Source: a virus. Taken from it: a stretch of 64,000 nucleotides of DNA. The translations under genes were made by a program, and so were the position numbers. How positions within the stretch are numbered: position 1 is the first letter of the stretch; the number at the start of each line of letters is the position of its first letter. This document shows positions 6,003-29,315 of the stretch, piece by piece. Below the pieces are notes generated by a model. The model was given only the letters and a program-made list of their open reading frames with translations. It did not search any database and was not told the DNA's origin. The stretch lies in IMG/VR virus record IMGVR_UViG_3300010883_026915, positions 1 through 64,000 of that record, one strand, 5' to 3'.

Positions 6003-7001
6003 ATGAAAGTTTGTTTTTTAACTTCAAGTCCAAATATTGATATTGGCTCATATAGGATATGGGTTAATGATTTATCAAAAACTATTTCTGATATTGGAAA
6101 TGAATCAATAATTTGCATTAATGACTTGGATGATCAGAAGTACGATGCTATAATACTGTGTAAGTCTGCCTACAAGTGTGCTGACAAAATAAAGGATAAG
6201 TTTAAAAATATAAAAGTAGGAGCTATAAACATACCTTCAAATTATCAAAATCCAAATATAGATTTTGTAATAGTGGGTAGTTATGAAGAAAAGTGTTCAC
6301 TTAGCTTTTATAAAAATGTATTTGTATATCCACTCATAGAAAGACAATTTCAAAATATAGAAAGAAAGATTCATAAAAAAGAAGACATTACTAGAATATG
6401 TTTTCATGGACACTTTCCACATCTTGCCAAGTTTGAACCGTTTCTTAGATCAGCAATAGAGTCTATATCTGGATCTGGAAACAATATAGAGTTAGTTGTT
6501 ATTACCGGTGATAGTAGGTTTGACTGGAAACATGGAAAACCAAAAAATGTTAAAGTAGAAATGCATCAATATGATCAAAAAACAATTACAGAAATTATTA
6601 AATCATGTGATATTGGTGTTGTTCCAAATGTAACAGATATGAGACTTTATAATGGAGATGTTCAAAAACAAAATAGTGTTGAATATGGTCTTTATAGTAC
6701 AGACTACTTTTTAAGATTTAAAAATAAAACAAATGCAGGAAGAGCTTTTGTTTTTTATCAGCATGGAATACCAGTAATACATGATTTAAGCCCGAGTAGT
6801 TTTGAATTTATGGGAAAGTGTGAAAATAAAATTGTTGCACATGATACTGCATCCTGGTGTAGAGAGATACTATACCTTATGGATCACAATACTAGAAACA
6901 CCGTTTCAAAAGAAAATTTTGATGTTTTTAATAATCACTATGATCCACACGATCATGCGAAAAAACTAGTTAAATTTATAGGAGATATACATAATGAGTA
7001 A
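6003..7001 (+). CDS. GT-B glycosyltransferase-like protein
   Basis: A 332-residue protein starting at ATG 6003 with a GAGG Shine-Dalgarno sequence. It opens with KVCFLTSSPNIDIGSYRIW, typical of the first strand and acceptor loop of GT-B enzymes. ITRICFHGHFPHLAKFEPF (about 129-147) marks the start of the C-terminal Rossmann domain. IIKSCDIGVVPN (about 199-210) and NAGRAFVFYQHGIPVI (about 246-261) match the sugar-nucleotide-binding region of GT4-like proteins. The last codons overlap the next gene by eight bases. The 39-bp gap before it is one of only two noticeable gaps in the island, and I see no clear promoter there. Donor and acceptor are unknown. Confidence 0.7.
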   Translation: MKVCFLTSSPNIDIGSYRIWVNDLSKTISDIGNESIICINDLDDQKYDAIILCKSAYKCADKIKDKFKNIKVGAINIPSNYQNPNIDFVIVGSYEEKCSLSFYKNVFVYPLIERQFQNIERKIHKKEDITRICFHGHFPHLAKFEPFLRSAIESISGSGNNIELVVITGDSRFDWKHGKPKNVKVEMHQYDQKTITEIIKSCDIGVVPNVTDMRLYNGDVQKQNSVEYGLYSTDYFLRFKNKTNAGRAFVFYQHGIPVIHDLSPSSFEFMGKCENKIVAHDTASWCREILYLMDHNTRNTVSKENFDVFNNHYDPHDHAKKLVKFIGDIHNE

Positions 7002-7758
7002 TAAAGTTGCAGATAGAGGATTTTTATATATAGCATTTGGTGATGCTTTTACAAAAGAGGCACTAATGTCAATAAAGTCTCTTAAGCGGTTTAATGATGA
7101 GCCAGTAGCATTATTCACAGATGCTGAAAAGACACCTGAGATAGATAGTCTTGTAGATGTTTATGCAAAAATTCAACCTACACATACACGCGCAAAAGTT
7201 GACTTTGTCTCGCACTCACCGTTTAACAAAACAGTATATCTTGACTCCGATACTGTAGTTGTAAGAAATATATCTGACATGTTTGACATACTTGATAGAT
7301 TCGATGTAGGATTAACAAATGATTATGCAAGAAAGCGTACAAAGTACTCAAAAATTGTACCAGAGTATGCAGAAATACCATATGCATTTTCAGAAGTAAA
7401 CGGGGGAATTATGGCATATAATTCTTCACTTTCTACTCAGACATTTCTTTCAATGTGGAAAGAGTACTTTTATAAATATTTTAATGAAACAAATGGATGG
7501 GATCAGGTTAGTCTAAGAGTTGCTTTATGGCGTAGCAATGTAAGAATACATCATTTTCCATTTGAGTATAACATAAGAAGCAAGGGCAATAGGGAAAAAC
7601 AGGATAGATTTAAACATGAGTTCGGCGATCAGCACATGGCCCCAAGAGTATATCATCTCCATTATAATAGTGAGGTACACCAGGGAAAATTTAAATATAG
7701 CTTGAGAGACTTTGATGAGTTTGAAAAATCAATAATTGATCAATCTGTGTGGTATTAA
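6994..7758 (+). CDS. GT8-like nucleotide-sugar glycosyltransferase
   Basis: A 254-residue GT-A-fold transferase. The N-terminus GFLYIAFGDAFTKEALMSIKSLK matches the GT8/nucleotide-diphospho-sugar transferase opening. DSDTVV at 84-89 is the DxD metal-binding motif. VNGGIMAYNSS near 136-146 and a GWDQVSLRVAL segment near 168-178 are the usual substrate-loop and catalytic DQ motifs. HLHYNSEVHQGKFKYS near the C-terminus resembles the HxxGxxKxW ending of GT8 proteins. A GGAG Shine-Dalgarno sequence lies 11 bases upstream of the ATG. It overlaps the end of the preceding GT-B gene. This should retain anomeric configuration if it behaves as GT8; the sugar is unknown. Confidence 0.8.
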   Translation: MSNKVADRGFLYIAFGDAFTKEALMSIKSLKRFNDEPVALFTDAEKTPEIDSLVDVYAKIQPTHTRAKVDFVSHSPFNKTVYLDSDTVVVRNISDMFDILDRFDVGLTNDYARKRTKYSKIVPEYAEIPYAFSEVNGGIMAYNSSLSTQTFLSMWKEYFYKYFNETNGWDQVSLRVALWRSNVRIHHFPFEYNIRSKGNREKQDRFKHEFGDQHMAPRVYHLHYNSEVHQGKFKYSLRDFDEFEKSIIDQSVWY

Positions 7759-8389: not shown

Positions 8390-8423
8390 GTGATTACATA
8401 ATTACTCTATGAGAGGTGATAAT

Positions 8424-9263
8424 ATGGAACCAAAAGAAAAACTTGCTGTGTGTAGTGTTATTAGTAATAGTCATTTAATATATCTTAAAGTTTTTATATA
8501 TTCTATCTTAAGACATAATCCTAAGTTTGATAGAGAGTATGTTGTCTTTTATAAAGATGGAGACATAGCTGAGGTCGACTTTAACCAGTTAAAAAAGATA
8601 TATAAAAATTTTATATTTAAAAAAATACCCACAGAGAAGTATAGAGAAAAAATAGGAGAAACACACGCGAAACAGTCTAAACATTCACAATCAATTAGAC
8701 TGTGGACATACTATAGAATTGAAATGTTCTCACTTATAGAGTATGATCAGATAATATGGTTTGATGTTGATATGCTTGTTATAAACAGCCTAGATGATCT
8801 TTTTAAAATGAGATACAATGAAGGGATTCTTGCCTGCGAAGATATTATTGCAAAGCATATTGTAAAAGATAATAGATATGAAAGAGATCACAAAGTACAA
8901 GGAGGCTTAGTTGTTTTAGGAAAAGATATAATAAGTAGCAATGTGTATAATGATTTGCTAAACTTGCTAAAGCATTCTGACAAATTTAAACTAAATGATC
9001 AATCAATGTTTTCAGAATATTTCGGAAGACAAGGAAAGATAAAGAAATTAAGCATAGTATATAATTGCGGCCAAAAGCTCTACCTAAGAAGACGCGAAAA
9101 TATCAAATTAAATTTAGAAAACACTAAAATAATTCACTTCGCAGGGTCTCAAAAGCCAATGTCTAAAGGCAACCGCCCGGCGAGAAGTGGGTCGCCTCCA
9201 CATAAAATATGGAAAAATTATATGAAAGATATGCTTAGTAAGTATGGATGGAAACAAGGTTGA
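8424..9263 (+). CDS. GT8-family glycosyltransferase
   Basis: A 279-residue glycogenin/LgtC-like transferase. The N-terminus LAVCSVISNSHLIYLKVFIYSILRH is a GT8 opening, IIWFDVDMLVINSLDDLF near 110-127 carries the DxD motif, and LNDQSMFSEYF near 195 provides the conserved DQ. The end (KIIHFAGSQKPMSKG) resembles the HxxGxxKPW motif of GT8 enzymes. An upstream in-frame ATG (8409) exists, but GAGAGGTGA lies seven to fourteen bases before the ATG at 8424, so I take 8424 as the start. It is the last gene before the palindrome gap and closes the glycosyltransferase half of the island. Confidence 0.85.
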   Translation: MEPKEKLAVCSVISNSHLIYLKVFIYSILRHNPKFDREYVVFYKDGDIAEVDFNQLKKIYKNFIFKKIPTEKYREKIGETHAKQSKHSQSIRLWTYYRIEMFSLIEYDQIIWFDVDMLVINSLDDLFKMRYNEGILACEDIIAKHIVKDNRYERDHKVQGGLVVLGKDIISSNVYNDLLNLLKHSDKFKLNDQSMFSEYFGRQGKIKKLSIVYNCGQKLYLRRRENIKLNLENTKIIHFAGSQKPMSKGNRPARSGSPPHKIWKNYMKDMLSKYGWKQG

Positions 9264-9341: not shown

Positions 9342-10178
9342 ATGAATACATTTGTAATAGCAGAAATTGGAATAAACCATAACGGTGATATCGAAATAGC
9401 AAAAAAGCTAATAGACGGAGCATATAAAGCAGGCTGTAATGCTGTAAAGTTTCAAAAAAGAACAATAGATATTGTCTATACACCTGAACAACTAAAGAGT
9501 GAAAGGCAGAGTCCATGGGGTTCAACACATAGAGATCAAAAAGAGGGCCTTGAGTTTGATTTCTCTGAGTATAAGGAGATTGATTTATATTGTAGGTCTT
9601 TAGGTATAGAGTGGTTTGCATCTGCCTGGGATGTTCCTAGTCAGAGATTTCTTTCTAATTTTGATATAAAATATAATAAAATAGCTTCTGCAATGCTAAC
9701 ACATAGAGATCTTTTAATGACAGTGGCAGCTGAGAAAAAGCATACTTTTATTTCTACTGGAATGAGTACTACTGATCAAATATCAAAAGCAATTAAAGTA
9801 TTTGAAAATGCTGGCTGCACTTATGAATTAATGCATTGCAATAGTGAATATCCTATGCCTGCTGAGAAAGCTAATTTAAATGTTATTAATACGCTTAGAG
9901 ATATATTTGATTGTAATGTAGGTTATAGTGGCCATGAAACATGCACAGGAATTAGCCTTGCAGCAGTTGCACTTGGTGCAACATCTATAGAAAGACATAT
10001 AACACTTGATAGATGCATGTATGGTAGTGATCAGGTAGCATCAATAGAAATAAAAAAATTAACATCTCTAGTTAGCGAGATTAGAAAGTTAGAGATTGCT
10101 CTGGGTGATGGTGTAAAAAAAGTAACTGAAAATGAAATCTCAGCAATGAAAAAGCTCAGGATTGTAGACACTCTCTGA
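9342..10178 (+). CDS. neuB: NeuB-family nonulosonate (sialic/legionaminic-type) synthase, no SAF domain
   Basis: NeuB enzymes condense phosphoenolpyruvate with a six-carbon amino sugar to make nine-carbon nonulosonic acids. This 278-residue protein shows the full TIM-barrel signature: AEIGINHNGD at 7-16, KFQKR at 36-40, STGMS at 138-142, HCNSEYPMP at 165-173, GYSGHE at 194-199 and IERHITLDR at 216-224. Typical NeuB proteins are about 340-350 residues and end with an antifreeze-like SAF domain that helps close the active site of the partner subunit. That domain is missing here, and the protein ends soon after the barrel. The start has an AGAGG Shine-Dalgarno sequence. It is the first gene after the palindrome gap and is followed directly by sugar-modifying oxidoreductases. 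Which nonulosonate it makes cannot be decided. Confidence 0.88.
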   Translation: MNTFVIAEIGINHNGDIEIAKKLIDGAYKAGCNAVKFQKRTIDIVYTPEQLKSERQSPWGSTHRDQKEGLEFDFSEYKEIDLYCRSLGIEWFASAWDVPSQRFLSNFDIKYNKIASAMLTHRDLLMTVAAEKKHTFISTGMSTTDQISKAIKVFENAGCTYELMHCNSEYPMPAEKANLNVINTLRDIFDCNVGYSGHETCTGISLAAVALGATSIERHITLDRCMYGSDQVASIEIKKLTSLVSEIRKLEIALGDGVKKVTENEISAMKKLRIVDTL

Positions 10179-13266: not shown

Positions 13267-13968
13267 ATGAAAGATATAAAAGATATATGCTTTATAATAC
13301 AGGCAAGACTTAGCTCTGAAAGAGTCCCTAGAAAGATGATGAAACCTTTTGGAGAAACAACACTTGTCGATATAGCATGTAAAAAAATAAATAAATCAAA
13401 AATAATACCGAGAGAAAATTTCTTTTTCTCTGCATATGATAAAGAGATAAAAGATGTAGTAGAAAAAAATAATTTACAAATATTTCATAGAAGCAAAGCT
13501 TCTGCATTTTCTGAAGGACCGATGCAAGAAGTTATGGAATATCATGATAAGCTAAATTTCAAATATTCTGTAGTGATTAGTGCATGCTGCCCAATGCTCT
13601 CTATAGAGTCTATTGATAGTTTTGTTAGGCACTATGTAGATTCTCCGCACGACGGTTTGTTTGCCGTAGTAGAAAAGAAAAATTATTTCTGGGATAGTAG
13701 AATGGAAATGATAACTGAGTGGCCAGATTGTGATGTTCTTAATACAAAAAAAGTAGGAGTAACATATGAGGCAGCACACTGCTTGTATGCTGGGAAAATG
13801 GATACCATAAGATCAGGAATATGGATGGCACCTGTGCCATTTAGTAAAAACAAGCCAGAGCTTTTTGCTATTCCAGAAGATGAAACATTTGATATTGATT
13901 ATAATTGGCAATTTAAAGTTGCAGAATCAATTTATTTAAATGGAATCAAGGATAGCTTTTGTGAATAG
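13267..13968 (+). CDS. SpsF/NeuA-type cytidylyltransferase
   Basis: A 233-residue nucleotidyltransferase with the opening FIIQARLSSERVPRKMMKPFG near 9-29, which matches the P-loop-like substrate motif of the acylneuraminate cytidylyltransferase/SpsF family. SACCPMLSIESIDSFV near 99-114 and FDIDYNWQFKVAE near 211-223 match the later motifs of the fold. Such enzymes usually activate sugars to CMP derivatives. A second, NeuA-like cytidylyltransferase lies at 16100, so the island holds two; they may serve two different acidic sugars. The gene directly follows the cupin stop. Confidence 0.8.
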   Translation: MKDIKDICFIIQARLSSERVPRKMMKPFGETTLVDIACKKINKSKIIPRENFFFSAYDKEIKDVVEKNNLQIFHRSKASAFSEGPMQEVMEYHDKLNFKYSVVISACCPMLSIESIDSFVRHYVDSPHDGLFAVVEKKNYFWDSRMEMITEWPDCDVLNTKKVGVTYEAAHCLYAGKMDTIRSGIWMAPVPFSKNKPELFAIPEDETFDIDYNWQFKVAESIYLNGIKDSFCE

Positions 13969-14710
13969 TTTTAAAGATATGAAAGGCTGCTTTAGCGACA
14001 AGAAAGCTCTTATCATTGGAAATGGACCATCACTAGACAATATAGATTTTGATCTATTAAAAGGAGATGACAATATTGTAACTTTTTCTACAAACCAGAT
14101 TGCAGATATTTGTAAAAAAAATATATGGTTTCCAGATTTTTATACTTCTTTTTTCTGTGGACCATTGAGAGGAAGATCATATTCTTTCTCTGATGGAACT
14201 TTAATAAACTACAACGGATCATATGAAAAAGCACTAGAAGCACAAGAGGATATAAAATACATAGTAGAAAATGAAAAAACTACTTGCTTTATTCATGAGT
14301 GGTATCATAAATTTATTTCCAAATCAAATAATACAAGATTTATAAAGCCGCAACTTTGGAATAGACATACACATTTCCCAGAGAATGGATTCGAAAAATT
14401 TAAGATACCTGATAATTTTCTATGGCATAATGCAACAACCCCGCTATTTCAATTATGTTTCTTTTTTGGATTTAAAAAAATTGCTATAATAGGCCAGGAT
14501 GGATATAAAATAGATAGGGAGAATCATTTTTCTAACTATAGAGGTAATGAAGGTACAAATTTTGAACGTGCAAATAGCTCAATAAACTTACTTCACAATG
14601 CTGTCTACTTTTATGCACAAAAAAATAAAATTGATACATTCAACTTGTCAAACATTTCTATATTAAACCAGCATACTAATATTGACCTAGAAAAGTTCGC
14701 AAGTCTATAA
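13961..14710 (+). CDS. DUF115/MptE-like protein, possible glycan transferase
   Basis: A roughly 250-residue protein whose KALIIGNGPSLDNIDFDLL near 17-35 is the signature of the DUF115 / 6-hydroxymethylpterin-pyrophosphokinase MptE-like family. Relatives in flagellar glycosylation loci (Maf/PseE type) are thought to transfer nonulosonic acids to proteins. ATTPLFQLCFFFGFKKIAII and GQDGY near 160-190 are also typical of sialyltransferase-like folds. Three starts are possible: ATG 13940, GTG 13961 and ATG 13979. I chose GTG 13961 because AAGGA at 13948-13952 is well spaced and the codon overlaps the upstream stop. Whether this copy transfers a sugar is not proven. Confidence 0.72.
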   Translation: MNSFKDMKGCFSDKKALIIGNGPSLDNIDFDLLKGDDNIVTFSTNQIADICKKNIWFPDFYTSFFCGPLRGRSYSFSDGTLINYNGSYEKALEAQEDIKYIVENEKTTCFIHEWYHKFISKSNNTRFIKPQLWNRHTHFPENGFEKFKIPDNFLWHNATTPLFQLCFFFGFKKIAIIGQDGYKIDRENHFSNYRGNEGTNFERANSSINLLHNAVYFYAQKNKIDTFNLSNISILNQHTNIDLEKFASL

Positions 14711-14732: not shown

Positions 14733-15503
14733 ATGTTTAATAGAAATATTTTTCAAGAAATAGATCTTGATAAAGACTACAGAAGTATTATTGAAGGAAA
14801 GACTATTGCAATAGTTGGACCAGCAAGCTATTTAGAGAAATCCAAGCTTGGAAATGAAATAGATAGCCATGATTTAGTAATAAGGATAAACAGGGGTTGC
14901 GAGTTAATAGGTAAATATTCTGAAGATATAGGTGTAAAAACAGATGTACTTTACTCATGCCTAATAGAGAAACCTGAGAATGCAGGAAAGATAGACATAG
15001 ATGCTTTAAAAGAAGACTACGGTATAAAGTATTTATGCACAACACCCCCACCGCAGCAAGACGGTACATCACTTGTTACAGATATACATCCTATGATAGA
15101 TAGAGATAAGTTTAATAAAATTTCAAAATCTATCCCGACAAGAATAGTTGATCATATATTCTGGAGCTCAATTGCTAGAGAGATAAAATCTAGGCCTACT
15201 ACTGGGTATGTTGCAATATTTGACCAAATGAGATTTAATCCTGCAAGTATTTCTGTATATGGCTATAGCTTTTATCTAACAGGAATTTTAAAAGGATATA
15301 AAGATGGAATAGTTGGAACTACAGAGTCTGAATTGTGTGAAAAGTCATTTAAGTCTCAGAGGCACAATCAGGAAAACATGTGGTTATATGCAAAAAAACA
15401 ACTTCTAAAAAACCCAAATGTAAATTTAGATTTAAATCTTTATAATATCCTTAGTATGAAAACTTTTGATAAAAATAATGATATTATAAGCGGTATAATA
15501 TAA
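14733..15503 (+). CDS. GT29 (sialyltransferase)-like glycosyltransferase
   Basis: A 256-residue protein with the opening IAIVGPASYLEKSKLGNEID near 26-45 and HDLVIRINRGCELIGKYSEDIG near 46-67. These correspond to the nucleotide-binding and asparagine-containing motifs of the GT29 sialyltransferase family, including the G-x-x-x-x-L...D-V-I-R-x-N pattern. RPTTGYVAIFDQM near 158-170 resembles the small sialylmotif, and ISVYGYSFYLTG follows. GT29 enzymes transfer CMP-activated sialic-type sugars. NeuB and NeuA homologues nearby make this donor plausible. AAGGAG and AGGAT lie upstream of the ATG. The length is near the minimal catalytic fold and no membrane anchor is seen, so it should be cytoplasmic. 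Confidence 0.75.
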   Translation: MFNRNIFQEIDLDKDYRSIIEGKTIAIVGPASYLEKSKLGNEIDSHDLVIRINRGCELIGKYSEDIGVKTDVLYSCLIEKPENAGKIDIDALKEDYGIKYLCTTPPPQQDGTSLVTDIHPMIDRDKFNKISKSIPTRIVDHIFWSSIAREIKSRPTTGYVAIFDQMRFNPASISVYGYSFYLTGILKGYKDGIVGTTESELCEKSFKSQRHNQENMWLYAKKQLLKNPNVNLDLNLYNILSMKTFDKNNDIISGII

Positions 15504-15519: not shown

Positions 15520-16125
15520 ATGAATATGAAAATTAATTTTGAAAATATAGAAAAGAGATGTTTTGATGCAATTGCTTCTAGTGAGTATAAAGAGCTAGTA
15601 TTAAAAGTTTCAAAGGCAAAGAGAATCTTTTTGCTTGGAAATGGTGGTCTGCACTTTGTAGCTAGCCACATGGCAACAGATCTTTCAAGATTAATACCCG
15701 ATAAATCTGTATATTCTTTTGATAGTGTTGGGTTTATTACTTCAAATGCAAATGATCATGGATTTGAACAACTTTTTGTCAGGTGGCTGGAGACAATAGC
15801 ATCTATTGAAAATCCGGAAGAGTGCCTTGTAATAGGAATGTCATGTTCTGGAAATTCTTCAAATGTTATTAATGCTCTTCATTGGGCAAGTGATAGAAGC
15901 ATAGATACATTTATGGTATCTGGGCAGAAGTCAGATATACTTAGACAGTGTGTCTCTGAAATGAGTTTTGAATGTGAGTATTTTCACACAGTAGAAGTCA
16001 TGTGTATGATTATATTTTATGATCTCATTCATCAGACAGATAACAAGTGTCCATCAATAAGAGGCGAAAAAGCTAGACTTAAAGATTCATCATTACGAGG
16101 TGCAATTGAGTCAAAAGAAGAGTAG
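15520..16125 (+). CDS. gmhA: SIS-domain phosphoheptose isomerase-like protein (copy 1)
   Basis: A 201-residue SIS protein similar to GmhA, which isomerises sedoheptulose 7-phosphate to D-glycero-D-manno-heptose 7-phosphate. IFLLGNGGLHFVASHMATDL near 35-54 is the phosphate-binding loop, SFDSVGFITSNANDHGFE near 69-86 the substrate loop, and CLVIGMSCSGNSSNVINAL near 103-121 the SIS core. AAGGA lies six bases before the ATG. A shorter second SIS gene is at 21967. The C-terminal region (RGEKARLKDSSLRG) extends past the fold. Heptose or another ketose phosphate may be the true substrate. Confidence 0.8.
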   Translation: MNMKINFENIEKRCFDAIASSEYKELVLKVSKAKRIFLLGNGGLHFVASHMATDLSRLIPDKSVYSFDSVGFITSNANDHGFEQLFVRWLETIASIENPEECLVIGMSCSGNSSNVINALHWASDRSIDTFMVSGQKSDILRQCVSEMSFECEYFHTVEVMCMIIFYDLIHQTDNKCPSIRGEKARLKDSSLRGAIESKEE

Positions 16126-17245
16126 TATAGAAAAAGTTATAATGATACCAGCTCGTGCCGGTAGCAAGAGAATTAAGAAAAAAAACATTAGGCTTCTTAG
16201 TGGCAAGCCGCTTATATCATATGCTATTAAGGCTTCCCTAGAGACAGGGCTTAAGGTTTATGTAAATTCTGACTGTGAAGTTATTCTAAAGCTAGCTGCG
16301 GATATGGGATGTATACCGTATAGAAGAGATGACTCACTATGCACAGACTTTTCTACAAATGATGAGTTTATGAATGACTTTATAGATAATATAAAATCAG
16401 AGTATGTTTTACAGATTCTTCCAACGTCGCCGTTTATAACAAGAGATGAAATATTAAATTTTTCAAAAGAGATGAATAATTTTGATACACTTATTTCAGT
16501 TAAGGATGCACAGATTGGATGTGTATATAATAGTAACCCTGTAAACTTTGACAAAACTAAGCAAAACCCGCCTTCACAGGAAATAGAGCCAGTAAAGATA
16601 TATGCAACGTCTTTAATGGGATGGAAATGTTCAACATTTAAAGATAATATGTCAATGTTTGGTTGTGCATATCATGGCGGAAGTAAAAATACTGGATATT
16701 TTACACTTACAGGATGGTCTACTGTAGATATAGATAATGAGTCTGATTTTATGATTGCTGAGTCTATAGCACAGATGATACCATTTGAAAAATTATACAA
16801 GCCATCATATCATGAACCAGAAACTTATTCTGACGATTTTGTTCCAAGGGTTTTAAAACAAGACGGAATACATGATGGAAATCCATCAACACCAAATAAA
16901 AACATAATATCAGTTACAAATCTTATGAATAGTGGAGTTGATAAAAGTGCATGGTATCATACCCTTGTAGATACTGAGAATAATTCATGTACTCTAATAA
17001 ACCAGATGCCTGGTGAGGGAAATAGACGTCATTACCATGCAAAATGGAATGAGTGGTGGTATATTCTTAGGGGAGAGTGGAAATTTGAAATAGGCGACGA
17101 TATTCACAAAGTAAAATCTGGTGATCTTGTTTTTATAGAAAAGGGCCACCGCCATAAAATAACTGCAGCTGGAGATAAAATTGCATCAAGGCTTGCTGTA
17201 TCCAGATATGATGTAGAGCACATATATAGAAAAGATGAAATATGA
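16100..17245 (+). CDS. neuA: NeuA-type CMP-nonulosonate synthetase fused to a cupin domain
   Basis: A 381-residue two-domain protein. Residues about 12-235 are an acylneuraminate cytidylyltransferase: IPARAGSKRIKKKNIR at 16-31 is the CTP-binding motif, followed by VNSDCEVI, LQILPTSPF and the late WSTVDIDNESDFMIAE segment. NeuA alone is usually about 220-230 residues. The last 120 or so residues form a cupin with MPGEGNRRHYHAKWNEWWY and GHRHKI metal-binding motifs. The cupin could process the sugar before or after activation. GTG 16100 keeps the first beta strand; an internal ATG at 16142 would delete part of it. It overlaps the SIS gene by 26 bases and the next SDR by ATGA. Confidence 0.85.
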   Translation: MQLSQKKSSIEKVIMIPARAGSKRIKKKNIRLLSGKPLISYAIKASLETGLKVYVNSDCEVILKLAADMGCIPYRRDDSLCTDFSTNDEFMNDFIDNIKSEYVLQILPTSPFITRDEILNFSKEMNNFDTLISVKDAQIGCVYNSNPVNFDKTKQNPPSQEIEPVKIYATSLMGWKCSTFKDNMSMFGCAYHGGSKNTGYFTLTGWSTVDIDNESDFMIAESIAQMIPFEKLYKPSYHEPETYSDDFVPRVLKQDGIHDGNPSTPNKNIISVTNLMNSGVDKSAWYHTLVDTENNSCTLINQMPGEGNRRHYHAKWNEWWYILRGEWKFEIGDDIHKVKSGDLVFIEKGHRHKITAAGDKIASRLAVSRYDVEHIYRKDEI

Positions 17246-17952
17246 AAATAGATTATTTGGGAAAAAAAGTTCTTGTAACTGGTGGAACTAGGGGAATTGG
17301 AAAAAGCCTTGTTGATAATTTTAAAAATCTCGGCGCAAGTGTCTGGTATACAGGAAGAAAACTAGACTTAAATGAAAAAGGTTATATTCAGGTAGATTTT
17401 TCAAAAAAACGTCAAATGGAAAAATTTCTTAAAAAAATAGCAAGTATTGACTTTGACGTTGTAATAAACAATGCGGGTACAAACAAAATTGGACCAATTG
17501 AAGAGTATAGTGAAAATGACTATAGCTTGATTATTGATTTAAATCTAACATCATGTTTTAAGATAATGAAAGCTGTCATTCCGGGAATGAAGGCAAGGGG
17601 TTACGGAAGAATAGTTAACATTACATCTATATCTAGTGAGATTAGTATGCCACTGAGAACAGCTTATTGCTCAAGTAAGTTTGGACTAGTTGGGTTAACA
17701 AAAGCAGCTGCAGTAGAATCTGCAAGACATGGAATTCTTATAAACTCCGTGGGACCGGGAGTTACAGAAACTGAATTAACAGTAGATATTCTCGGAAAAG
17801 ATAAGATGGCTGAAATAGCTAAAAATATTCCGGCAGGAAGGCTAGCATGTGTTCAAGATATAGCATCTACTGTAATGTTTGTCGCTAGTGATCTTAATTC
17901 TTATATTGTAGGTCAAAATATTCTTGTTGACGGAGGTTACACGTGTGTCTAG
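17242..17952 (+). CDS. SDR-family oxidoreductase, FabG-like (3 of 3)
   Basis: A 236-residue classical SDR with VTGGTRGIGKS near 12-22, VINNAGTN near 76-83, catalytic YCSSK near 142-146 preceded by ITSISSEIS, PG near the active-site lid, and the ending GQNILVDGGYTCV. All key residues are present. It is the most canonical of the three SDR genes in the island. Its start overlaps the NeuA-cupin stop (ATGA), and its end overlaps the next gene's GTG start. The coupling suggests its product feeds the same pathway, but the substrate is unknown. Confidence 0.87.
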   Translation: MKIDYLGKKVLVTGGTRGIGKSLVDNFKNLGASVWYTGRKLDLNEKGYIQVDFSKKRQMEKFLKKIASIDFDVVINNAGTNKIGPIEEYSENDYSLIIDLNLTSCFKIMKAVIPGMKARGYGRIVNITSISSEISMPLRTAYCSSKFGLVGLTKAAAVESARHGILINSVGPGVTETELTVDILGKDKMAEIAKNIPAGRLACVQDIASTVMFVASDLNSYIVGQNILVDGGYTCV

Positions 17953-19027
17953 TATAATATCAATTAAATCGTATATTGGTAAGTACACTGTATCTGTATA
18001 TGATACAGAGCAATGTAAAAATGCACGATCTCAAGCTCTAGAAAAGCTTTCTTGTAATACTTTTTTAGTAATTGATAGAAAGGTAGCTAGTCTATATCCA
18101 GAGATTACTGAATACTGGAGTGATAATAACATTCATAAAATAGATGCTCTTGAATCAAATAAAGAGCTAGCGACATGCGAAATTTTATTAAAAAAATTAA
18201 ATGATGCTTCTTTTAAAAAAAATATGAAATTAGTTGCAATTGGCGGCGGAATTATACAGGATATTACTTCGTTTACAGCTTCAATATTATATAGAGGTGT
18301 TGATTGGATTTTTATACCTACAACACTTTTGGCCCAGGCAGATAGTTGTATCGGCAGCAAAACTTCTATTAATTTTAATGGAGCTAAAAATATTTTAGGA
18401 AATTTCTACCCACCTATGGAGGTTTACTGTTTTACGGATTTTCTTAGCTCACTGTCTAAGAATGATATAAAAAGCGGAATAGGAGAAATATTACACTATT
18501 ATATTGTCGACAATAGTCAGCATTCTAAAGAAATTATAAGAGATTATGATAAAATTCTAGAAAATCCTGGAGTAATATATTCTCACATTTTAGAAAGTCT
18601 GTCAATTAAAAAGAGAATGATTGAAATAGATGAGTTTGATAAAAAACAGCGAAGGATTTTTAATTATGGACATACTTTTGGGCATGCAATAGAGGTGTTA
18701 AGTGACTTTAAAATCTCACACGGACAGGCTGTCACACTGGGCATGGATATTGCAAACTTTGTTTCATTCTCACTGGGGATGATACCGATCGAGAGATATA
18801 AATCTTTATGTGAGATTTTATCAAAAAATATTCCTATCTTTAGAATAGAAAGTAAAAAAATAGATGATTTTATTAGACTGCTTCAAAAAGATAAAAAAAG
18901 TATAAAGGACAATATTGTTTGTATACTTCCTGTTGGAGATAGTGATGTATCAGTTATAACAATTTCACATATTGATACATTAAGATCTCTAATAAAAGAG
19001 TATACAATGCTAAGTGTAGAGATTTGA
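17945..19027 (+). CDS. 3-dehydroquinate synthase-like sugar phosphate cyclase
   Basis: A 360-residue AroB-superfamily protein. The NAD-binding GGGIIQD near 100-106, PTTLLAQADSCIGSKTSIN near 125-143, KNILGNFYPP, GIGEIL near 178-183 (metal-ligand Glu) and NYGHTFGHAIE near 240-250 (metal-ligand His residues) are all present. GGAGGT at 17932-17937 lies eight bases before a GTG at 17945, which sets the start; a TTG at 17924 is less likely. Family members cyclise DAHP (AroB) or sedoheptulose 7-phosphate (EEVS/DOI-like enzymes). Because GmhA homologues nearby also use sedoheptulose 7-phosphate, a cyclitol product is possible, but the substrate cannot be assigned from motifs alone. Confidence 0.83.
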   Translation: MSSIISIKSYIGKYTVSVYDTEQCKNARSQALEKLSCNTFLVIDRKVASLYPEITEYWSDNNIHKIDALESNKELATCEILLKKLNDASFKKNMKLVAIGGGIIQDITSFTASILYRGVDWIFIPTTLLAQADSCIGSKTSINFNGAKNILGNFYPPMEVYCFTDFLSSLSKNDIKSGIGEILHYYIVDNSQHSKEIIRDYDKILENPGVIYSHILESLSIKKRMIEIDEFDKKQRRIFNYGHTFGHAIEVLSDFKISHGQAVTLGMDIANFVSFSLGMIPIERYKSLCEILSKNIPIFRIESKKIDDFIRLLQKDKKSIKDNIVCILPVGDSDVSVITISHIDTLRSLIKEYTMLSVEI

Positions 19028-20103: not shown

Positions 20104-21002
20104 AAAATGTAGTAGTTACAGGTGGTGCTGGGTTCATAGGATCAAATTTAGTAAAAGAACTTATTAAAATAGACATAAATGTAAAAATAATAGATGACTT
20201 TTCAAGCGGAAAAAGATCAAACATACCAAAGAGCAAAAATATTCATGTATGGAATCAGGATATATCAGATGCATCTGCAGAAGATCTTTTAAGCTTTATG
20301 AAAGACGTCGATGTTGTCTTTCACATGGCAGCAAGAGCACGAGTACAACCGTCTATTGATGATCCAGTGCCATTTAACAAGGCTAATGTTGATTCTACAC
20401 TAAAGATACTTGTTGCTGCAAAAGACTCAAATGTCAAAAGAGTTGTATATAGTGCTAGTAGTTCATGCTATGGTGATACAAAAATAATACCAACACCTGA
20501 GACAGCAGCTAAAAACCCTCTATCACCATATGGTCTTCAGAAATATATAGGCGAGCAATATTGTAAACTATTTAGTGAAATTTATGATATAGATACAGTT
20601 TCATTAAGATATTTTAACATATATGGAAGCGGAATGTCTAGCGATGGTGCATATTCTCTAGTTCTTGCAATATGGAAAAAACAATTCAATGAAGGCTACC
20701 CATTAACAATAACAAACGACGGAAATCAAAGAAGAGACTTTACACATGTAGATGATGTTATTAGTGCAAACATTCTTGCAGCAACATCTAAGAATAATTT
20801 TAAAGGCAAGTCATATAATATTGGAAATGGAAGATCCCTATCTATGAATGAAGTTTCAGATATGATAGGTGGAAAAGTAATATATTGTGAGAATAGAATG
20901 GAACCATTTGAAACATGTGCTGATAATACTAGTGCTATAAAAGATCTAGGGTGGAATCCAACAGGAAGTTTAAGTAATTTTATTAATAAGAATTTTAAAT
21001 GA
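20100..21002 (+). CDS. NAD-dependent nucleotide-sugar epimerase/dehydratase (copy 1)
   Basis: A 300-residue extended SDR. VTGGAGFIGSNLV at 6-18 binds NAD, VVFHMAARARVQPS near 74-87 and the catalytic SASSSCYG with Tyr144-x-x-x-Lys148 (YGLQK) are intact, as are RYFNIYGSG and GNQRRDFTHVDDV. This matches the UDP-sugar 4-epimerase (GalE/WbpP) group. A paralogue lies at 24065. The product could be an epimerised heptose or hexose nucleotide. The start overlaps the methyltransferase stop. Confidence 0.87.
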   Translation: MKNVVVTGGAGFIGSNLVKELIKIDINVKIIDDFSSGKRSNIPKSKNIHVWNQDISDASAEDLLSFMKDVDVVFHMAARARVQPSIDDPVPFNKANVDSTLKILVAAKDSNVKRVVYSASSSCYGDTKIIPTPETAAKNPLSPYGLQKYIGEQYCKLFSEIYDIDTVSLRYFNIYGSGMSSDGAYSLVLAIWKKQFNEGYPLTITNDGNQRRDFTHVDDVISANILAATSKNNFKGKSYNIGNGRSLSMNEVSDMIGGKVIYCENRMEPFETCADNTSAIKDLGWNPTGSLSNFINKNFK

Positions 21003-21976
21003 GTAGTCTAATAGTATCAAGAACACCCTTGAGAATAAGTTTAATAGGTGGTGGAAGTGATCTATATTCTTACTATTCAAAAGCTGGGTTTGGAAAAGTA
21101 ATAAGTGTAACTATTGACAAGTATATATACATAACTGCCCACAGTAGATACGACGGATTAATAAGAGCAAGCTATTCCAAAACAGAAATTGAAAAAAATG
21201 TAAGCGAGATAAAGCACGATCTAATAAGAGAATCAATGAATCTATTGAGAATAGAATCAGGTATAGAAGTTACCTCTATATCAGACGTAACTGCATATGG
21301 TACAGGTTTGGGGTCTTCTAGCGCGTATACTGCTGGTGTACTAAATGCTTTATCAAATCTATGTGGAAAAAAATATAGTAGATTCAATCTTGCAAATGAC
21401 GCGTGCATTGTGGAAATTGAAAAATGCATGCAGCCAATAGGAAAACAAGATCAATTTTCATCAGTTTTTGGAGGACTAAATGAGATTAAATTTACAAACA
21501 ATAATGTATTTGTAAGTGAGATCAATACAAGTTCAGAAAATTTAGATAATCTATCAGAAAATTTATTATTATTTGACACAGGAATAAAAAGAAAAGCTTC
21601 TACAATATTAGCAAGACAGAAAAAAGGATATGAAAACAATAAATTAGAAATAACAAGAAAACTAGTAGATTTAGTCCCACTAATGAAAAATGCTATAGTC
21701 GAAGACATAAGCCTTGTTGGAGAGATACTTGACGAAAGCTGGAATATAAAAAAAACAGTAACTAGTGGAATATCTAATGATATAATAGACGAGTATTATA
21801 AGATAGCAATGAAAAATGGAGCATCTGGTGGAAAGCTCTGCGGCGCTGGCGGTGGCGGCTTTTTGCTTTTTTATGCAAATAAAAAAGATCATAAAAGATT
21901 GAGAAGTGCACTATGCAATATGAAAGAATTAAATTTTAAATTTGACTATGGGGGAGCAAAAATATTATGCAGCTAG
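20999..21976 (+). CDS. hddA: HddA-like D-glycero-D-manno-heptose 7-phosphate kinase (GHMP family)
   Basis: A 325-residue GHMP kinase. The N-terminal RTPLRISLIGGGSDLYSYY near 8-26 is the HddA-type opening, the ATP-binding GTGLGSSSAYTAGVLNAL near 101-118 is motif 2, and GASGGKLCGAGGGGFLLFY near 273-291 is motif 3. GKQDQFSSVFGGLNE near 147-161 is also typical. HddA phosphorylates heptose 7-phosphate at C1. The downstream genes are a GmhA-like isomerase, a HAD phosphatase and a nucleotidyltransferase, giving the other steps of NDP-heptose synthesis. All genes overlap or abut, consistent with one operon. Confidence 0.88.
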   Translation: MSSLIVSRTPLRISLIGGGSDLYSYYSKAGFGKVISVTIDKYIYITAHSRYDGLIRASYSKTEIEKNVSEIKHDLIRESMNLLRIESGIEVTSISDVTAYGTGLGSSSAYTAGVLNALSNLCGKKYSRFNLANDACIVEIEKCMQPIGKQDQFSSVFGGLNEIKFTNNNVFVSEINTSSENLDNLSENLLLFDTGIKRKASTILARQKKGYENNKLEITRKLVDLVPLMKNAIVEDISLVGEILDESWNIKKTVTSGISNDIIDEYYKIAMKNGASGGKLCGAGGGGFLLFYANKKDHKRLRSALCNMKELNFKFDYGGAKILCS

Positions 21977-22461
21977 ATAGGCTAAAGCTTGAAATAGATA
22001 ATATAAAATCATATGTAGGCAAGCTAACAAATCTAGTTGAGTCTCATGATAGAGTTATAATAATAGGGAATGGTGGAAGTAACTCTATTGCATCTCATAT
22101 ATCACAGGATTACACAAAAGCTTTGGGAAAAAATGCAATATGCTTCTCAGATCCTTCAAGACTTACATGCTATATTAACGATTACGGAATGAAAAATGCA
22201 TATAGAGTTTTTATAGAAGAATTTTCAACAAAAGACACACTAGTAATTGCAATATCATCCTCTGGTAATTCTGACAATATAATAAATGCTGTTAAATATT
22301 GCAATAAAAATAACATAAAGACTGTTACCCTTTCCGGATTCGAAAAAGATAATAAGCTTAATATGCTAGACAGCGAAATTAATTACTGGGTAGACTCTAG
22401 AGATTATGGTGTTATTGAATGCGCACATCTTGTATTTCTTCATTCTATAATAAAATATTAG
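21967..22461 (+). CDS. gmhA: Phosphoheptose isomerase-like SIS protein (copy 2)
   Basis: A 164-residue SIS protein closer to minimal GmhA. VIIIGNGGSNSIASHISQDY near 30-49 is the phosphate loop, LVIAISSSGNSDNIINAV near 94-111 the SIS core, and an ECAHLVFLHSIIKY ending supplies the acidic/His catalytic region of GmhA. It overlaps the HddA kinase gene by ten bases and is followed by a HAD phosphatase, which strongly supports heptose 7-phosphate formation from sedoheptulose 7-phosphate. Typical GmhA is about 190 residues, so it is slightly short. Confidence 0.85.
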   Translation: MQLDRLKLEIDNIKSYVGKLTNLVESHDRVIIIGNGGSNSIASHISQDYTKALGKNAICFSDPSRLTCYINDYGMKNAYRVFIEEFSTKDTLVIAISSSGNSDNIINAVKYCNKNNIKTVTLSGFEKDNKLNMLDSEINYWVDSRDYGVIECAHLVFLHSIIKY

Positions 22462-22467
22462 GAAAAA

Positions 22468-22773
22468 ATGAGAATATTTGTAGATATCGATGGAACTATT
22501 TGTAAAACATTAAAAGATGATGGAGCTTGGGATTATAGGAATTCAAAGCCTATCCATACAAATATTGAAAAAATAAATAAGCTGAAGGCTGATGGCAATG
22601 AGATAGTTTATTGGACTGCAAGAGGTAGTACTTCTGGAATAGACTGGCATGATTTTACACATAATCAGCTTATGCTGTGGGGTTGTTTATTTGATGATCT
22701 TATATGTGGCAAAAAAAAGGGAGCCTTTGATATGATAATTGATGATAAAGCAAAGAGAATTGAAGAGATATGA
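22468..22773 (+). CDS. Minimal HAD-like phosphatase (copy 2)
   Basis: A 101-residue capless HAD-like protein with VDIDGTICK near 5-13, YWTARGSTSGIDW near 49-61 and FDMIIDDKAKR near 87-97. It is clearly related to the gene at 19027, sharing the central block. In this position, between the isomerase/kinase and the nucleotidyltransferase, it best fits the heptose 1,7-bisphosphate 7-phosphatase step (GmhB function), though GmhB proteins are much longer. It overlaps the dehydrogenase start by ATGA. Confidence 0.77.
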   Translation: MRIFVDIDGTICKTLKDDGAWDYRNSKPIHTNIEKINKLKADGNEIVYWTARGSTSGIDWHDFTHNQLMLWGCLFDDLICGKKKGAFDMIIDDKAKRIEEI

Positions 22774-23651
22774 AAATAGGGATAATAGGCCAGGGATTTG
22801 TAGGATCTGCTATAAAGGCGGGACTAAAGAATTTTTATGACATTAGAACATATGATATTGATGAGTCAAGATGTAACAGTACCCATCAAGCAGTTTGTTA
22901 TGAGTCAGATATTATTTTTGTATGTCTCCCTACACCAATGAGAAAAGATGGCAGCTGTGATACTAGAATGCTAGAATTCGCAATTGATAAAGCTTATAAT
23001 GTTTTAAAGGATGAGCACAAAATACCTAAACATTCTGATTTTCTAAATAAGCAAAATCATAAAAAGATCTTTGTAATAAAATCAACTGTACCTCCCGGGA
23101 CAACAGCAAGAATAGCTTCTAGCTATAAGGGTATTGACATTTGCTTTAGTCCAGAATTCCTTACTGAGGCGAATTCTTTTGAAGACTTTAAGAATCAGAG
23201 CAGAATTATCATAGGCGGCCCAAGACCGGCAACGGGCACAGTAAAACAAATGTTTAGAAAAGCATTCCCTACAATACCTATTGTTAAAACAGGAACAAAG
23301 ACTGCAGAAATGGTAAAGTACTTTACAAACTGTTTTCTTGCAACAAAAGTGACTTTTGCAAATGAAATGTATGATATATGCACTGCTGCAAATGTAGATT
23401 TTGACAAAGTTACAGAATATGCTCTACACGATAAAAGAATTGGAAATAGTCATTTAACTGTTCCTGGGCCAGATGGCGACAGGGGTTTTGGCGGCCATTG
23501 TTTTCCAAAAGACACAAAAGCAATTGTTTATTTCGCAAAAACACTAGGTATAGATGCAGAAGTTTTAAAAAGTGTTCTTAACAAAAATGATAAGATTAGA
23601 AGTGATAGAGATTGGGAAAAGATGAAAGGTAGAGCTATAAGTGAAGACTAG
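22770..23651 (+). CDS. UDP-glucose/GDP-mannose-type nucleotide-sugar 6-dehydrogenase, short form
   Basis: A 293-residue protein with the Rossmann loop GQGFVGSA at 7-14, CLPTPM at 52-57, KSTVPPGTT at 104-112, PEFLTEANSFEDF at 128-140 and the catalytic cysteine in GFGGHCFPKD (Cys244). The oxidation of the C6 hydroxyl to a uronic acid is therefore expected. Usual family members are 390-450 residues and end with a nucleotide-sugar-binding domain; here the protein stops about 50 residues after the catalytic Cys, so the C-terminal domain is absent. The substrate could be a hexose or heptose nucleotide. Confidence 0.85.
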   Translation: MKIGIIGQGFVGSAIKAGLKNFYDIRTYDIDESRCNSTHQAVCYESDIIFVCLPTPMRKDGSCDTRMLEFAIDKAYNVLKDEHKIPKHSDFLNKQNHKKIFVIKSTVPPGTTARIASSYKGIDICFSPEFLTEANSFEDFKNQSRIIIGGPRPATGTVKQMFRKAFPTIPIVKTGTKTAEMVKYFTNCFLATKVTFANEMYDICTAANVDFDKVTEYALHDKRIGNSHLTVPGPDGDRGFGGHCFPKDTKAIVYFAKTLGIDAEVLKSVLNKNDKIRSDRDWEKMKGRAISED

Positions 23652-24063
23652 AATTATCAAAGGAATTATAGCCGGAAGCTTTGACCTAATTCACCCAGGC
23701 TACATAAAAATGTTTGAAGATGCTAGAAAAAATGCATGTGATTATCTAGTCATAGCTTTACAGAGTGATCCCACAGTCGAGAGGCCTGAAAAGTGTAAGC
23801 CTGTTCAGAGTGTAAGTGATAGAGAGTATATTTTAAGATCAATAAGATATATTGACGATATTGTTCATTATACAACTGAGGTCGAGCTGCTTGATATCTT
23901 AAAGAATTATGATTATGACGTCAGAATAATTGGTAGTGATTATTCAACTGATACTGGATTTACAGGTTGTGAAATTGATAAGCATGTGTATTTTCATAAG
24001 AGAGATCACTGCTACTCTCTAACAGACCTAAAGAAAAGAATAATAAATAGCGGAGTGTTATAA
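23641..24063 (+). CDS. HldE-C/TagD-like sugar-phosphate nucleotidyltransferase
   Basis: A 140-residue cytidylyltransferase-like protein. GIIAGSFDLIHPGYIKMFEDA near 8-28 contains the HxGH-type nucleotide motif (here HPGY), and SDREYILRSIRYID near 60-73 and IIGSDYST near 99-106 match the remaining fold of glycerol-3-phosphate cytidylyltransferase or the HldE C-terminal adenylyltransferase domain. It starts at GTG 23641, overlapping the dehydrogenase by eleven bases. It completes the set isomerase, kinase, phosphatase, nucleotidyltransferase needed for an NDP-heptose. The nucleotide used is uncertain. Confidence 0.8.
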   Translation: MKTRIIKGIIAGSFDLIHPGYIKMFEDARKNACDYLVIALQSDPTVERPEKCKPVQSVSDREYILRSIRYIDDIVHYTTEVELLDILKNYDYDVRIIGSDYSTDTGFTGCEIDKHVYFHKRDHCYSLTDLKKRIINSGVL

Positions 24064-24960: not shown

Positions 24961-25584
24961 ATGTCTGAGTTGATTTATCCTGTTTGTATTGGAATGGAAA
25001 GATCTGGATCTACAGTTGTATGGCAAATAGCATCACTAGTACTAAAAAATAGATTGGAAAAAACACATGACTATGTTGATGGCACATGTGATTGTATCTA
25101 CACCTATAGAGATCCAATAGCATGCTATATCTCACTAAGAAGAGTTTTTCTAGATGTATATCCTAGAGGTATAGCAGAAAATCATGCTATAAGAAGACTA
25201 TATAGCCATGCACAGTATTATAAAAACCTTCTAAGGGATAAGCGAAGAGGTCGAAGAGTTTTATTTTTAAAATACGAAGATTTCTACAACATGCAAGAAG
25301 AAAGAATTATTTATATTTCCAGGTTTTTAAATAAAAAACTTTCCGCAGAAGAAGTCAAAAAAATACTAAATCAGACTTCCATAGAGGAAAATCTTAAAAA
25401 AAGTAATAATAGAAACTTTGGAATAGTTGATAAAGATAGTAATTTACATGGATTTCATATAAATCCAGTAACGCTTGGCAACCCTGAAAGCTCTCTATCA
25501 AAAAAAGAAAATTATACACAAATAGCAGAAATAAAGAGTGATCCAAGAATGGTAGAGCTAAGAAAGATTTTCTGCTATTATTAA
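24961..25584 (+). CDS. PAPS-dependent sulfotransferase-like protein
   Basis: A 207-residue protein. GMERSGSTVVWQI near 11-23 is the 5'-phosphosulfate-binding loop, and CIYTYRDPIACYISLRR near 45-61 the 3'-phosphate-binding motif of sulfotransferases. VLFLKYEDF near 98-106 and ISRFLNKKLS near 117-126 match the Sulfotransfer_1 pattern. The enzyme would move sulfate from PAPS to a hydroxyl of the glycan; PAPS would come from the host because no PAPS synthesis genes are visible. It is the last gene of the island, two bases after the epimerase stop, and a promoter-like gap follows. Confidence 0.8.
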   Translation: MSELIYPVCIGMERSGSTVVWQIASLVLKNRLEKTHDYVDGTCDCIYTYRDPIACYISLRRVFLDVYPRGIAENHAIRRLYSHAQYYKNLLRDKRRGRRVLFLKYEDFYNMQEERIIYISRFLNKKLSAEEVKKILNQTSIEENLKKSNNRNFGIVDKDSNLHGFHINPVTLGNPESSLSKKENYTQIAEIKSDPRMVELRKIFCYY

Positions 25585-25643: not shown

Positions 25644-26495
25644 ATGGAAAAATTAATTACAAGCAGTTTTCCAACTGGGAAAAAACATATATCTTTTTCT
25701 GAAATAAAGATATGGAAAGAGTGTTCATGGAGACATAAGCTAGTATATATTGATAAAATAGACATGTTCGAACCGTCACCTTACCTAGATTTTGGAACTG
25801 CAGTTCACGAAGGCTGTGAGACATATTTAAAAAATAGATCTGTTAATGTTGAAAAGCTTAAGGAAAATATAGTTTCTGCATGGGAAAAGTATGGATTTGA
25901 TAATCCTGAATGGGTAGCTAAGCAACCATCATGGTATTTGAAATCATCTAATGTAGGTGTGGAAAAATGGTGTGAGTGGGCAGAAAATATGTGGGCAGAA
26001 GTTCCAGAATTTTTAGAAGAAACTTTTCCCGGATGGGAATGCTTTGATGCTGAGGAGACACTATATGAATCAATAGATAAAAAAGATATATTATTTAAAG
26101 GATTTATTGATGGTATTATAAAAGTGCCAAAGAAAAGAGGTGAAGGGAGCATTTATTGGATTATTGATTGGAAAACTTCTGGAGCCTATGGGTGGAGAAG
26201 AGATAAGAAGCAAGATCTAGGGATGACAGCACAATTAATTCTTTATAAGCATTTCTGGGCTAGAAAGCACGGAATCGATATAAAAGATGTTAGGTGTGGG
26301 TTTGTACTTTTAAAACGAGGGGGTAAGCAAGGCAAAATATGTGAACTAGTAACAGTCTCAGTAGGCCCAAAATCTCTTGAAAAAGGAAAAAAATTAATGA
26401 ACAATATGGTGGGATCTGTTCAGAATCAACTATTTCTAAAAAATAGAAATAGTTGTAAGTATTGTCCATACGAAAATACAAACTACTGTACATAG
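25644..26495 (+). CDS. PD-(D/E)XK nuclease with probable Fe-S cluster (Cas4/AddB-like)
   Basis: A 283-residue RecB-family nuclease. GTAVHEGCE at 51-59 contains the conserved His, GFIDGII (Asp156) and WIIDWKTS (Asp175, Lys177) form the PD-(D/E)XK core, and TAQLILYKHFW near 195-205 is the QxxxY motif. One cysteine near the N-terminus (Cys27) and three at the C-terminus (Cys271, Cys274, Cys282) match the 4Fe-4S arrangement of Cas4 and AddB. The opening SFSEIKIWKECSWRHKLVYIDK is also typical of this family. A single-strand exonuclease role in phage recombination or DNA degradation is likely. AGGAG precedes the ATG. No CRISPR array or other cas gene is present. Confidence 0.88.
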   Translation: MEKLITSSFPTGKKHISFSEIKIWKECSWRHKLVYIDKIDMFEPSPYLDFGTAVHEGCETYLKNRSVNVEKLKENIVSAWEKYGFDNPEWVAKQPSWYLKSSNVGVEKWCEWAENMWAEVPEFLEETFPGWECFDAEETLYESIDKKDILFKGFIDGIIKVPKKRGEGSIYWIIDWKTSGAYGWRRDKKQDLGMTAQLILYKHFWARKHGIDIKDVRCGFVLLKRGGKQGKICELVTVSVGPKSLEKGKKLMNNMVGSVQNQLFLKNRNSCKYCPYENTNYCT

Positions 26496-26522
26496 TATTC
26501 AAATTATTAACAATACTTCTTT

Positions 26523-26530
26523 TTATAGTA
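26523..26530 (+). promoter_or_regulatory. TTATAGTA element upstream of GT4 pair
   Basis: Second copy of the octamer seen at 25616, here in the 67-bp gap before the GT4 gene at 26563. It is followed by TTATTTTTT. It could be a promoter for the GT4-GT4-membrane-protein-sigma run. No good -35 box is seen. Confidence 0.3.
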
Positions 26531-26562
26531 TTATTTTTTAAACAAAGAGTGAAAATTTCTAG

Positions 26563-29308: not shown

Positions 29309-29315
29309 AATAAAA

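What the first reader, a model, noticed from the sequence alone, without database searches (positions are those of the whole stretch)
14733..15503. GT29 sialyltransferase-like gene in a phage
The VIRINRG and RPTTG motifs and overall length fit GT29, a family best known from animals and only sparsely present in prokaryotes and viruses. Its place beside NeuA and NeuB genes gives a coherent donor.
Basis: partly seen in the sequence, partly recalled or inferred. Interest (0 to 1): 0.62.

Follow-up and report, generated by a model that had tools for sequence, protein, structure and literature searches.

The report
Phage sialyltransferase-like (GT29) sugar-capping enzyme
A tailed bacterial virus carries a divergent, membrane-free relative of the animal sialyltransferases inside a 25-kb sugar-making cassette; it probably attaches a sialic-acid-like sugar to the virus particle or to the host surface. 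GT29 in phages has been annotated before, but this branch lacks two usual GT29 motif features.

Summary
The ORF is real: 14733-15503 (+), 256 aa, in an 80-kb fragment of a T4-like tailed phage. GT29 (PF00777) is its only Pfam match (2.3e-13, 50.6 bits against a cut-off of 23), although that match spans sialylmotif L alone. Thirty-three relatives were collected, including a 47%-identical orthologue in another virus contig. With them the fold is predicted confidently (pLDDT 86, pTM 0.88), and the top 30 PDB matches are all mammalian GT29 sialyltransferases. The motif VS histidine (H211), the GT29 catalytic base, is conserved. Motif III and the VS glutamate (Met here) are lost, so this is a divergent GT29 branch. 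Genes resembling NeuA or NeuB lie within 8 kb in 18 of 30 independent GT29 loci, against 1 of 49 control phage glycosyltransferase loci, and that one control also encodes a GT29 (p = 5e-9). Best reading: an inverting CMP-nonulosonate transferase. None of the roughly 35 cassette genes has a membrane-spanning segment, which favours glycosylation of virion proteins over polymer export. The donor need not be Neu5Ac, because NeuA and NeuB score below their equivalog cut-offs. GT29 is already annotated in an uncultured Caudovirales phage and in bacteria, so this is a new variant, not a new kind.

The parts
14733..15503 (+). GT29-like glycosyltransferase, 256 aa, soluble (no TM segment)
   Evidence: PF00777 E=2.3e-13; AF2 pLDDT 86, Foldseek top 30 PDB hits all GT29; no TM-like segment
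14802..14954 (+). Sialylmotif L region (aa 24-74), includes VIRINRG
   Evidence: Pfam match aa 24-74; G40, I43, D47, R51, G67 invariant in 34 relatives
15192..15206 (+). Sialylmotif S core RPTTG (aa 154-158)
   Evidence: G158 at least 90% conserved in 34 relatives; hhalign aligns it to PSxG of the canonical branch
15363..15380 (+). Motif VS: HNQENM (aa 211-216); H211 = predicted catalytic base; canonical Glu at +5 is Met
   Evidence: H211 invariant in the 7-member branch, at least 90% in 34 relatives, aligned to the His of motif VS by hhalign
9342..10178 (+). NeuB-like nonulosonate synthase (278 aa, no C-terminal SAF domain seen)
   Evidence: PF03102 1.2e-70; TIGR03569 260.5 bits, below cut-off 399.65, model positions 1-274 of 329
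13267..13968 (+). NeuA/KdsB-type CMP-sugar cytidylyltransferase
   Evidence: PF02348 7.1e-14; PseF 33.8 bits, below cut-off
16100..17245 (+). NeuA/PseF-type cytidylyltransferase fused to a cupin
   Evidence: PF02348 1.3e-16 and Cupin_2; PseF 3.4e-23, below cut-off; 44% identical full-length relative beside GT29 in L037/L038
15520..16125 (+). SIS-domain isomerase-like protein, next gene downstream
   Evidence: SIS 0.0016, below Pfam cut-off; relatives beside GT29 in L028 and L037/L038
13940..14710 (+). MptE-like protein, next gene upstream; possibly a second distant sialyltransferase-like enzyme
   Evidence: PF01973 1.1e-9; weak PHROG 4603 'alpha-2,3-sialyltransferase' E=0.038
8409..9263 (+). 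GT8 glycosyltransferase in the same cassette
   Evidence: PF01501 1.4e-22
6994..7758 (+). Nucleotide-diphospho-sugar transferase-like gene; orthologue lies directly upstream of GT29 in L028
   Evidence: PF03407 2e-5; 60% identical in L028
17242..25584 (+). Rest of the sugar cassette: SDR, AroB-like, HAD-like, epimerases, GHMP kinase, SIS, cytidylyltransferase, UDP-sugar dehydrogenase-like, sulfotransferase

Best explanation
The gene encodes a soluble, single-domain GT29-like (GT-A-variant fold) inverting glycosyltransferase. It takes a CMP-activated nonulosonic- or ulosonic-type acid, made by the cassette's NeuB-like synthase and NeuA-like cytidylyltransferases, and adds it to the end of a phage-directed glycan. 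CMP binds through sialylmotifs L and S, and H211 of motif VS acts as the general base. The acceptor glycan is most likely built in the cytosol by the other cassette glycosyltransferases on a virion protein. Shown here: gene, family, fold, conserved base histidine, and statistical linkage to NeuA/NeuB. Inferred: CMP-nonulosonate transfer, exact donor, acceptor, and virion target.
For: PF00777 is the only Pfam family hit, and all 34 aligned relatives hit it. The profile of relatives aligns end to end with ST3Gal1 (2wnb, 8.2e-29) and ST6Gal1, and secondarily with GT42 CstII. AF2 gives pLDDT 86.1 and pTM 0.88, and Foldseek ranks 1-30 in the PDB are all GT29 sialyltransferases, E 1e-7 to 2e-5. H211 is aligned with the motif VS His by profile-profile comparison (99.6%, 6e-25). 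NeuA- or NeuB-like genes are within 8 kb in 18/30 independent GT29 loci against 1/49 control GT4 loci (p = 4.9e-9), and the one positive control carries its own GT29-NeuA-NeuB operon. In the orthologue L028 the cytidylyltransferase gene overlaps the end of the GT29 gene. No cassette protein has a TM-like segment, so no flippase, polymerase or initiating membrane transferase is seen there.
Against: The window protein's own Pfam match covers only motif L (51 aa). Motif III (HYxE) is absent, and the VS Glu is Met. TM-scores to GT29 structures are about 0.4-0.56, so the structural match is remote. NeuB and NeuA score far below the NCBIfam equivalog cut-offs (260 against 400; 82 against 206), and the orthologue L028 has no NeuB within 8 kb, so the donor is uncertain. 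No acceptor is known. Virion as the target rests only on the absence of membrane genes and on the cassette's position.
Confidence: 0.78

Rival explanations
1. Same enzyme class, but the target is the host surface: it caps host LPS, capsule or O-antigen with a nonulosonic acid during infection, for instance to block superinfection.
For: Phage glycosyltransferases that modify host serotype are known (cited in PMC12619734). Bacterial relatives in Pseudoalteromonas, Helicobacter, Melainabacteria and others lie in bacterial genomes.
Against: No membrane protein occurs among the cassette genes 405-28982 (the nearest is one small ORF at 28979-29308), so export would depend wholly on host machinery. 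The genome looks like a T4-like phage, and no integrase was noted among the genes examined, though none was searched for specifically.
Confidence: 0.35
2. A GT29-fold enzyme with a changed donor or activity, such as a Kdo-type CMP-sugar or another CMP/nucleotide substrate; loss of motif III and the VS Glu marks altered chemistry.
For: Motif III is missing and the VS Glu is mostly lost across the branch: H-x4-M in the window and L028, Q or N in L016, L018, L029 and L030, though L004 keeps Glu. L028 carries an HpcH/HpaI aldolase next to NeuA instead of NeuB. Plant GT29 members are discussed as candidate RG-II glycosyltransferases in papers that mention CMP-Kdo (PMC11288761 and PMC3522684, listed but not read in detail).
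Against: The catalytic-base His and motifs L and S are kept. Linkage with cytidylyltransferases argues that the donor is still a CMP-sugar.
Confidence: 0.3
3. An MptE-like or other Rossmann-type enzyme (pterin diphosphokinase, GT42) mistaken for GT29 because of a shared motif.
For: GT42 and MptE-type folds appear lower in the structure searches (CstII 9.6e-5; M. jannaschii HPPK 4.3e-4). The neighbouring gene 13940-14710 is MptE-like.
Against: No MptE or GT42 Pfam match at E<=1. GT29 structures rank well above them, and the GT29 motif VS histidine is conserved.
Confidence: 0.04

Closest known systems
Animal GT29 sialyltransferases (ST3Gal1, ST6Gal1, ST6GalNAc2, ST8SiaIII)
   Same: Fold, sialylmotif L, motif S core, motif VS histidine; whole-domain profile alignment through relatives
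   Different: No membrane anchor, shorter, motif III absent, VS Glu replaced by Met; about 16-20% identity; no Golgi context
Bacterial GT29 proteins (Petit et al. 2018, PMC5811610)
   Same: Soluble prokaryotic GT29 without the animal TM segment and disulfides; relatives found here in Pseudoalteromonas, Helicobacter, Melainabacteria and others
   Different: Phage-borne; belongs to a branch that lacks motif III, with a 'VGP' start to motif L
Phage proteins already annotated GT29 (BFVD A0A6J5NLG3, uncultured Caudovirales phage) and the unannotated GT29 genes of huge phage LR756508
   Same: GT29 domain in a tailed phage; LR756508 has several GT29-like genes beside a NeuB-like gene
   Different: The LR756508 copies keep the VS Glu and motif III, and two of them match most of the PF00777 profile
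GT42 bacterial sialyltransferases (Campylobacter CstI/CstII)
   Same: Distantly similar fold, CMP-Neu5Ac donor
   Different: Clearly weaker match than GT29 in sequence and structure

Membership tests
GT29 (PF00777 Glyco_transf_29) | Score above Pfam's curated cut-off | tested here: met
   50.6 bits against 23; all 34 relatives match at E<=0.01
GT29 (PF00777 Glyco_transf_29) | Sialylmotif L | tested here: met
   Pfam match aa 24-74; invariant G40, I43, D47, R51, G67
GT29 (PF00777 Glyco_transf_29) | Sialylmotif S | tested here: inconclusive
   Core RPTTG present and aligned, but the rest of the motif is divergent and outside the Pfam match
GT29 (PF00777 Glyco_transf_29) | Motif III (His-Tyr-x-Glu) | tested here: not met
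   No HYxE between aa 177 and 211 in the window protein or in L028; its His is at least 90% conserved in the canonical branch A6
GT29 (PF00777 Glyco_transf_29) | Motif VS: catalytic His with Glu at +5 | tested here: inconclusive
   H211 met; Glu not met, Met in the window and L028
GT29 (PF00777 Glyco_transf_29) | GT29 fold | tested here: met
   AF2 pLDDT 86.1; PDB ranks 1-30 all GT29, probability 1.00, but TM only about 0.40-0.56
GT29 (PF00777 Glyco_transf_29) | Transfer from CMP-sialic acid | not testable with these tools
   Needs a biochemical assay
Neu5Ac pathway (NeuB/NeuA equivalogs) | Scores above NCBIfam equivalog cut-offs | tested here: not met
   NeuB 260.5 against 399.65; PseF 82.4 and 33.8 against 205.7
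GT42 (CstI/CstII) | Better match than GT29 | tested here: not met
   No Pfam GT42 match; CstII ranks below the GT29 structures

The most novel reading that the evidence does not exclude
Tailed phages carry a widespread GT29-NeuA-NeuB module that decorates virion proteins with nonulosonic acids. Within it the window's branch is a catalytically altered GT29 subfamily (no motif III, H-x4-M in motif VS) that transfers a still unknown CMP-ulosonic acid.
Probability: 0.3. Interest if true: 0.72.

Novelty: new variant of a known kind. Interest (0 to 1): 0.47.

Why it matters
GT29 is known chiefly from animals, and its origin has been traced to a handful of bacterial sequences. A varied pool of soluble phage GT29-like enzymes, linked to CMP-nonulosonate genes, widens the family and bears on its origin. 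It also gives small soluble enzymes for structural and synthetic work, and a direct test of whether tailed phages coat themselves or their hosts with sialic-acid-like sugars.

Tried and rejected
A single-sequence AlphaFold model was useless (pLDDT 32) and was replaced by the alignment-based one. Single-sequence relatives searches in viral and genome contigs found nothing; alignment queries did. PHROGs and NCBIfam have no match for the protein. An MptE-like or GT42 identity was considered and rejected because of the ranking. MAFFT first aligned E198 of the window with the VS histidine; adding the orthologue L028 and hhalign corrected this to H211. No relative of the neighbour 13940-14710 was found in viral contigs by scan, though distant ones (27-28%) turned up in L063-L065. 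Literature searches found no paper on GT29 in phages; the library is incomplete. The tree supports window + L028 (100/97) and + L029 (95/84) but does not resolve the deeper order. My control loci were chosen by a GT4 gene of this phage's own backbone, so they represent related phages rather than all viruses. The GT29 loci were fetched through motif L patterns, so the sample leans towards relatives with a well-kept motif L.

Full report
Observation. The ORF at 14733-15503 is present as described: plus strand, ATG, 256 aa, no internal stop. It carries VIRINRG at aa 49-55 and RPTTG at aa 154-158. Its genome, G000, is an 80,014-base IMG/VR virus record. It is a T4-like tailed phage: its baseplate wedge protein (32724-34577) matches Flavobacterium, Microcystis and huge-phage records over 95% or more of its length. 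The part beyond the window (L101) reads as a large terminase, portal, prohead protease, SbcC-like and RuvC-like proteins (my reading of the sequences, not profile-tested).

Family. Pfam gives one family only, Glyco_transf_29, 2.3e-13, 50.6 bits against a cut-off of 23, but the match spans aa 24-74, which is sialylmotif L. PHROGs and NCBIfam give nothing.

Relatives. Two huge-phage records match weakly. One of them, LR756508 (L003), carries several GT29-like genes with strong Pfam matches (1.6e-26 to 8e-32, two of them over most of the profile), one of them directly before a NeuB gene. Alignment-driven scans then gave 25 viral and 11 bacterial loci. L028, a 115-kb virus contig, holds an orthologue 47% identical over aa 17-248, whose differences from the window gene fall mainly on third codon positions. 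In 34 aligned proteins G40, I43, D47, R51 and G67 are invariant, and G29, D44, S45, G158, G177 and H211 are at least 90% conserved. All 34 match PF00777. A profile of the 34 aligns with the whole catalytic domain of ST3Gal1 at 8e-29 and of ST6Gal1 at 4e-24, and with GT42 CstII at 2e-7.

Structure. With 31 sequences the AlphaFold2 model has mean pLDDT 86.1 and pTM 0.88; single-sequence folding had failed. Foldseek against the PDB ranks mammalian GT29 enzymes 1-30 (E 1e-7 to 2e-5, probability 1.00), followed by a Pasteurella sialyltransferase and CstII. TM-scores are about 0.40-0.56 by query length, which fits remote homology. In the viral library the top hits include ChoanoV1 proteins, an uncultured Caudovirales phage protein already named 'Glycosyl transferase family 29', and herpes- and poxvirus sialyltransferases.

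Active site. The motif VS histidine is the catalytic base of GT29 (PMC10225777). It is H211 here: invariant in the seven-member branch that includes the window and aligned to the VS histidine of the canonical branch by hhalign (probability 99.6, E 6e-25). The canonical glutamate five residues on is Met in the window and L028 (HxQxNM), Gln in L018 and L029, and Asn in L016 and L030, while L004 keeps Glu. The HYxE of motif III, whose His is conserved in the canonical viral and bacterial branch (H192), is missing from this branch. The tree joins the window with L028 (100/97) and L029 (95/84). I therefore call it a divergent GT29-like branch rather than a textbook GT29.

Donor. I tested the gene context against a control. 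Profiles of the NeuA-like and NeuB-like proteins were run over all loci, and over 60 loci fetched around another phage glycosyltransferase (GT4) of the same genome. After clustering, 18 of 30 independent GT29 loci (window excluded) have NeuA or NeuB nearby, 10 both, against 1 of 49 control clusters (Fisher p = 4.9e-9; viral loci alone 14 of 20, p = 3.4e-9). The one control locus, L047, turned out to hold a GT29-NeuA-NeuB operon with overlapping genes. In L028 the cytidylyltransferase overlaps the end of the GT29 gene, and L039 shows the same. This ties the family to CMP-nonulosonate-type donors. The identity of the sugar stays open: NeuB and NeuA score below the equivalog cut-offs, the NeuB here matches only model positions 1-274 of 329 with no SAF-type domain seen, and L028 has an HpcH/HpaI aldolase but no NeuB in reach.

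Acceptor and role. Genes 1154-25584 make up a sugar cassette: GT2, GT4, GT8, GT29, methyltransferases, SDRs, cytidylyltransferases, a sulfotransferase and others. It sits just upstream of a conserved PDDEXK-GT4-GT4-baseplate backbone shared by many related phages whose upstream genes differ. None of the genes from 405 to 28982 encodes a membrane-spanning segment (hydropathy scan), so the cassette has no flippase, polymerase or initiating membrane transferase of its own. That favours decoration of a soluble acceptor, most simply a virion protein. It is an inference, and host-surface modification with host machinery remains possible.

What is known. Bacterial GT29 was reported in 2018 from 23 sequences, mostly alphaproteobacterial (PMC5811610). 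In my sample 9 of 399 Pseudomonadota genomes, one of them the seed genome, carry PF00777. Phage GT29 exists as an annotation. I found no paper that describes phage GT29 or its link to NeuA/NeuB in the library searched.

Noticed in passing
17924-19027: AroB-related protein matching TIGR04425 (399.2 bits, cut-off 400), a putative sugar-phosphate cyclase of unknown role, in a phage.
   Followed up: no
20999-24063: GHMP kinase close to HddA, GmhA-like SIS protein, HAD-like protein and TagD-type cytidylyltransferase: a possible second (heptose-type) nucleotide-sugar pathway.
   Followed up: partly
13940-14710: MptE-like protein just upstream of the GT29 gene, with a weak PHROG hit to alpha-2,3-sialyltransferase; may be a second distant transferase.
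   Followed up: partly
9342-10178; L047 4770-5588; L003 8677-9576: Phage NeuB-like proteins are about 270-300 aa and match only the first ~274 of 329 NeuB model positions, so the C-terminal SAF domain seems missing in all of them.
   Followed up: partly
L003 (LR756508.1 309194-326809): A huge phage with at least five GT29-like genes close together; one match runs through an in-frame TAG, which may point to stop-codon recoding.
   Followed up: no
25644-36125: PDDEXK-GT4-GT4-baseplate backbone is conserved in many virus contigs, while the sugar genes upstream differ: a variable glycan cassette site.
   Followed up: partly
24961-25584: Sulfotransferase-domain gene in the phage sugar cassette.
   Followed up: no
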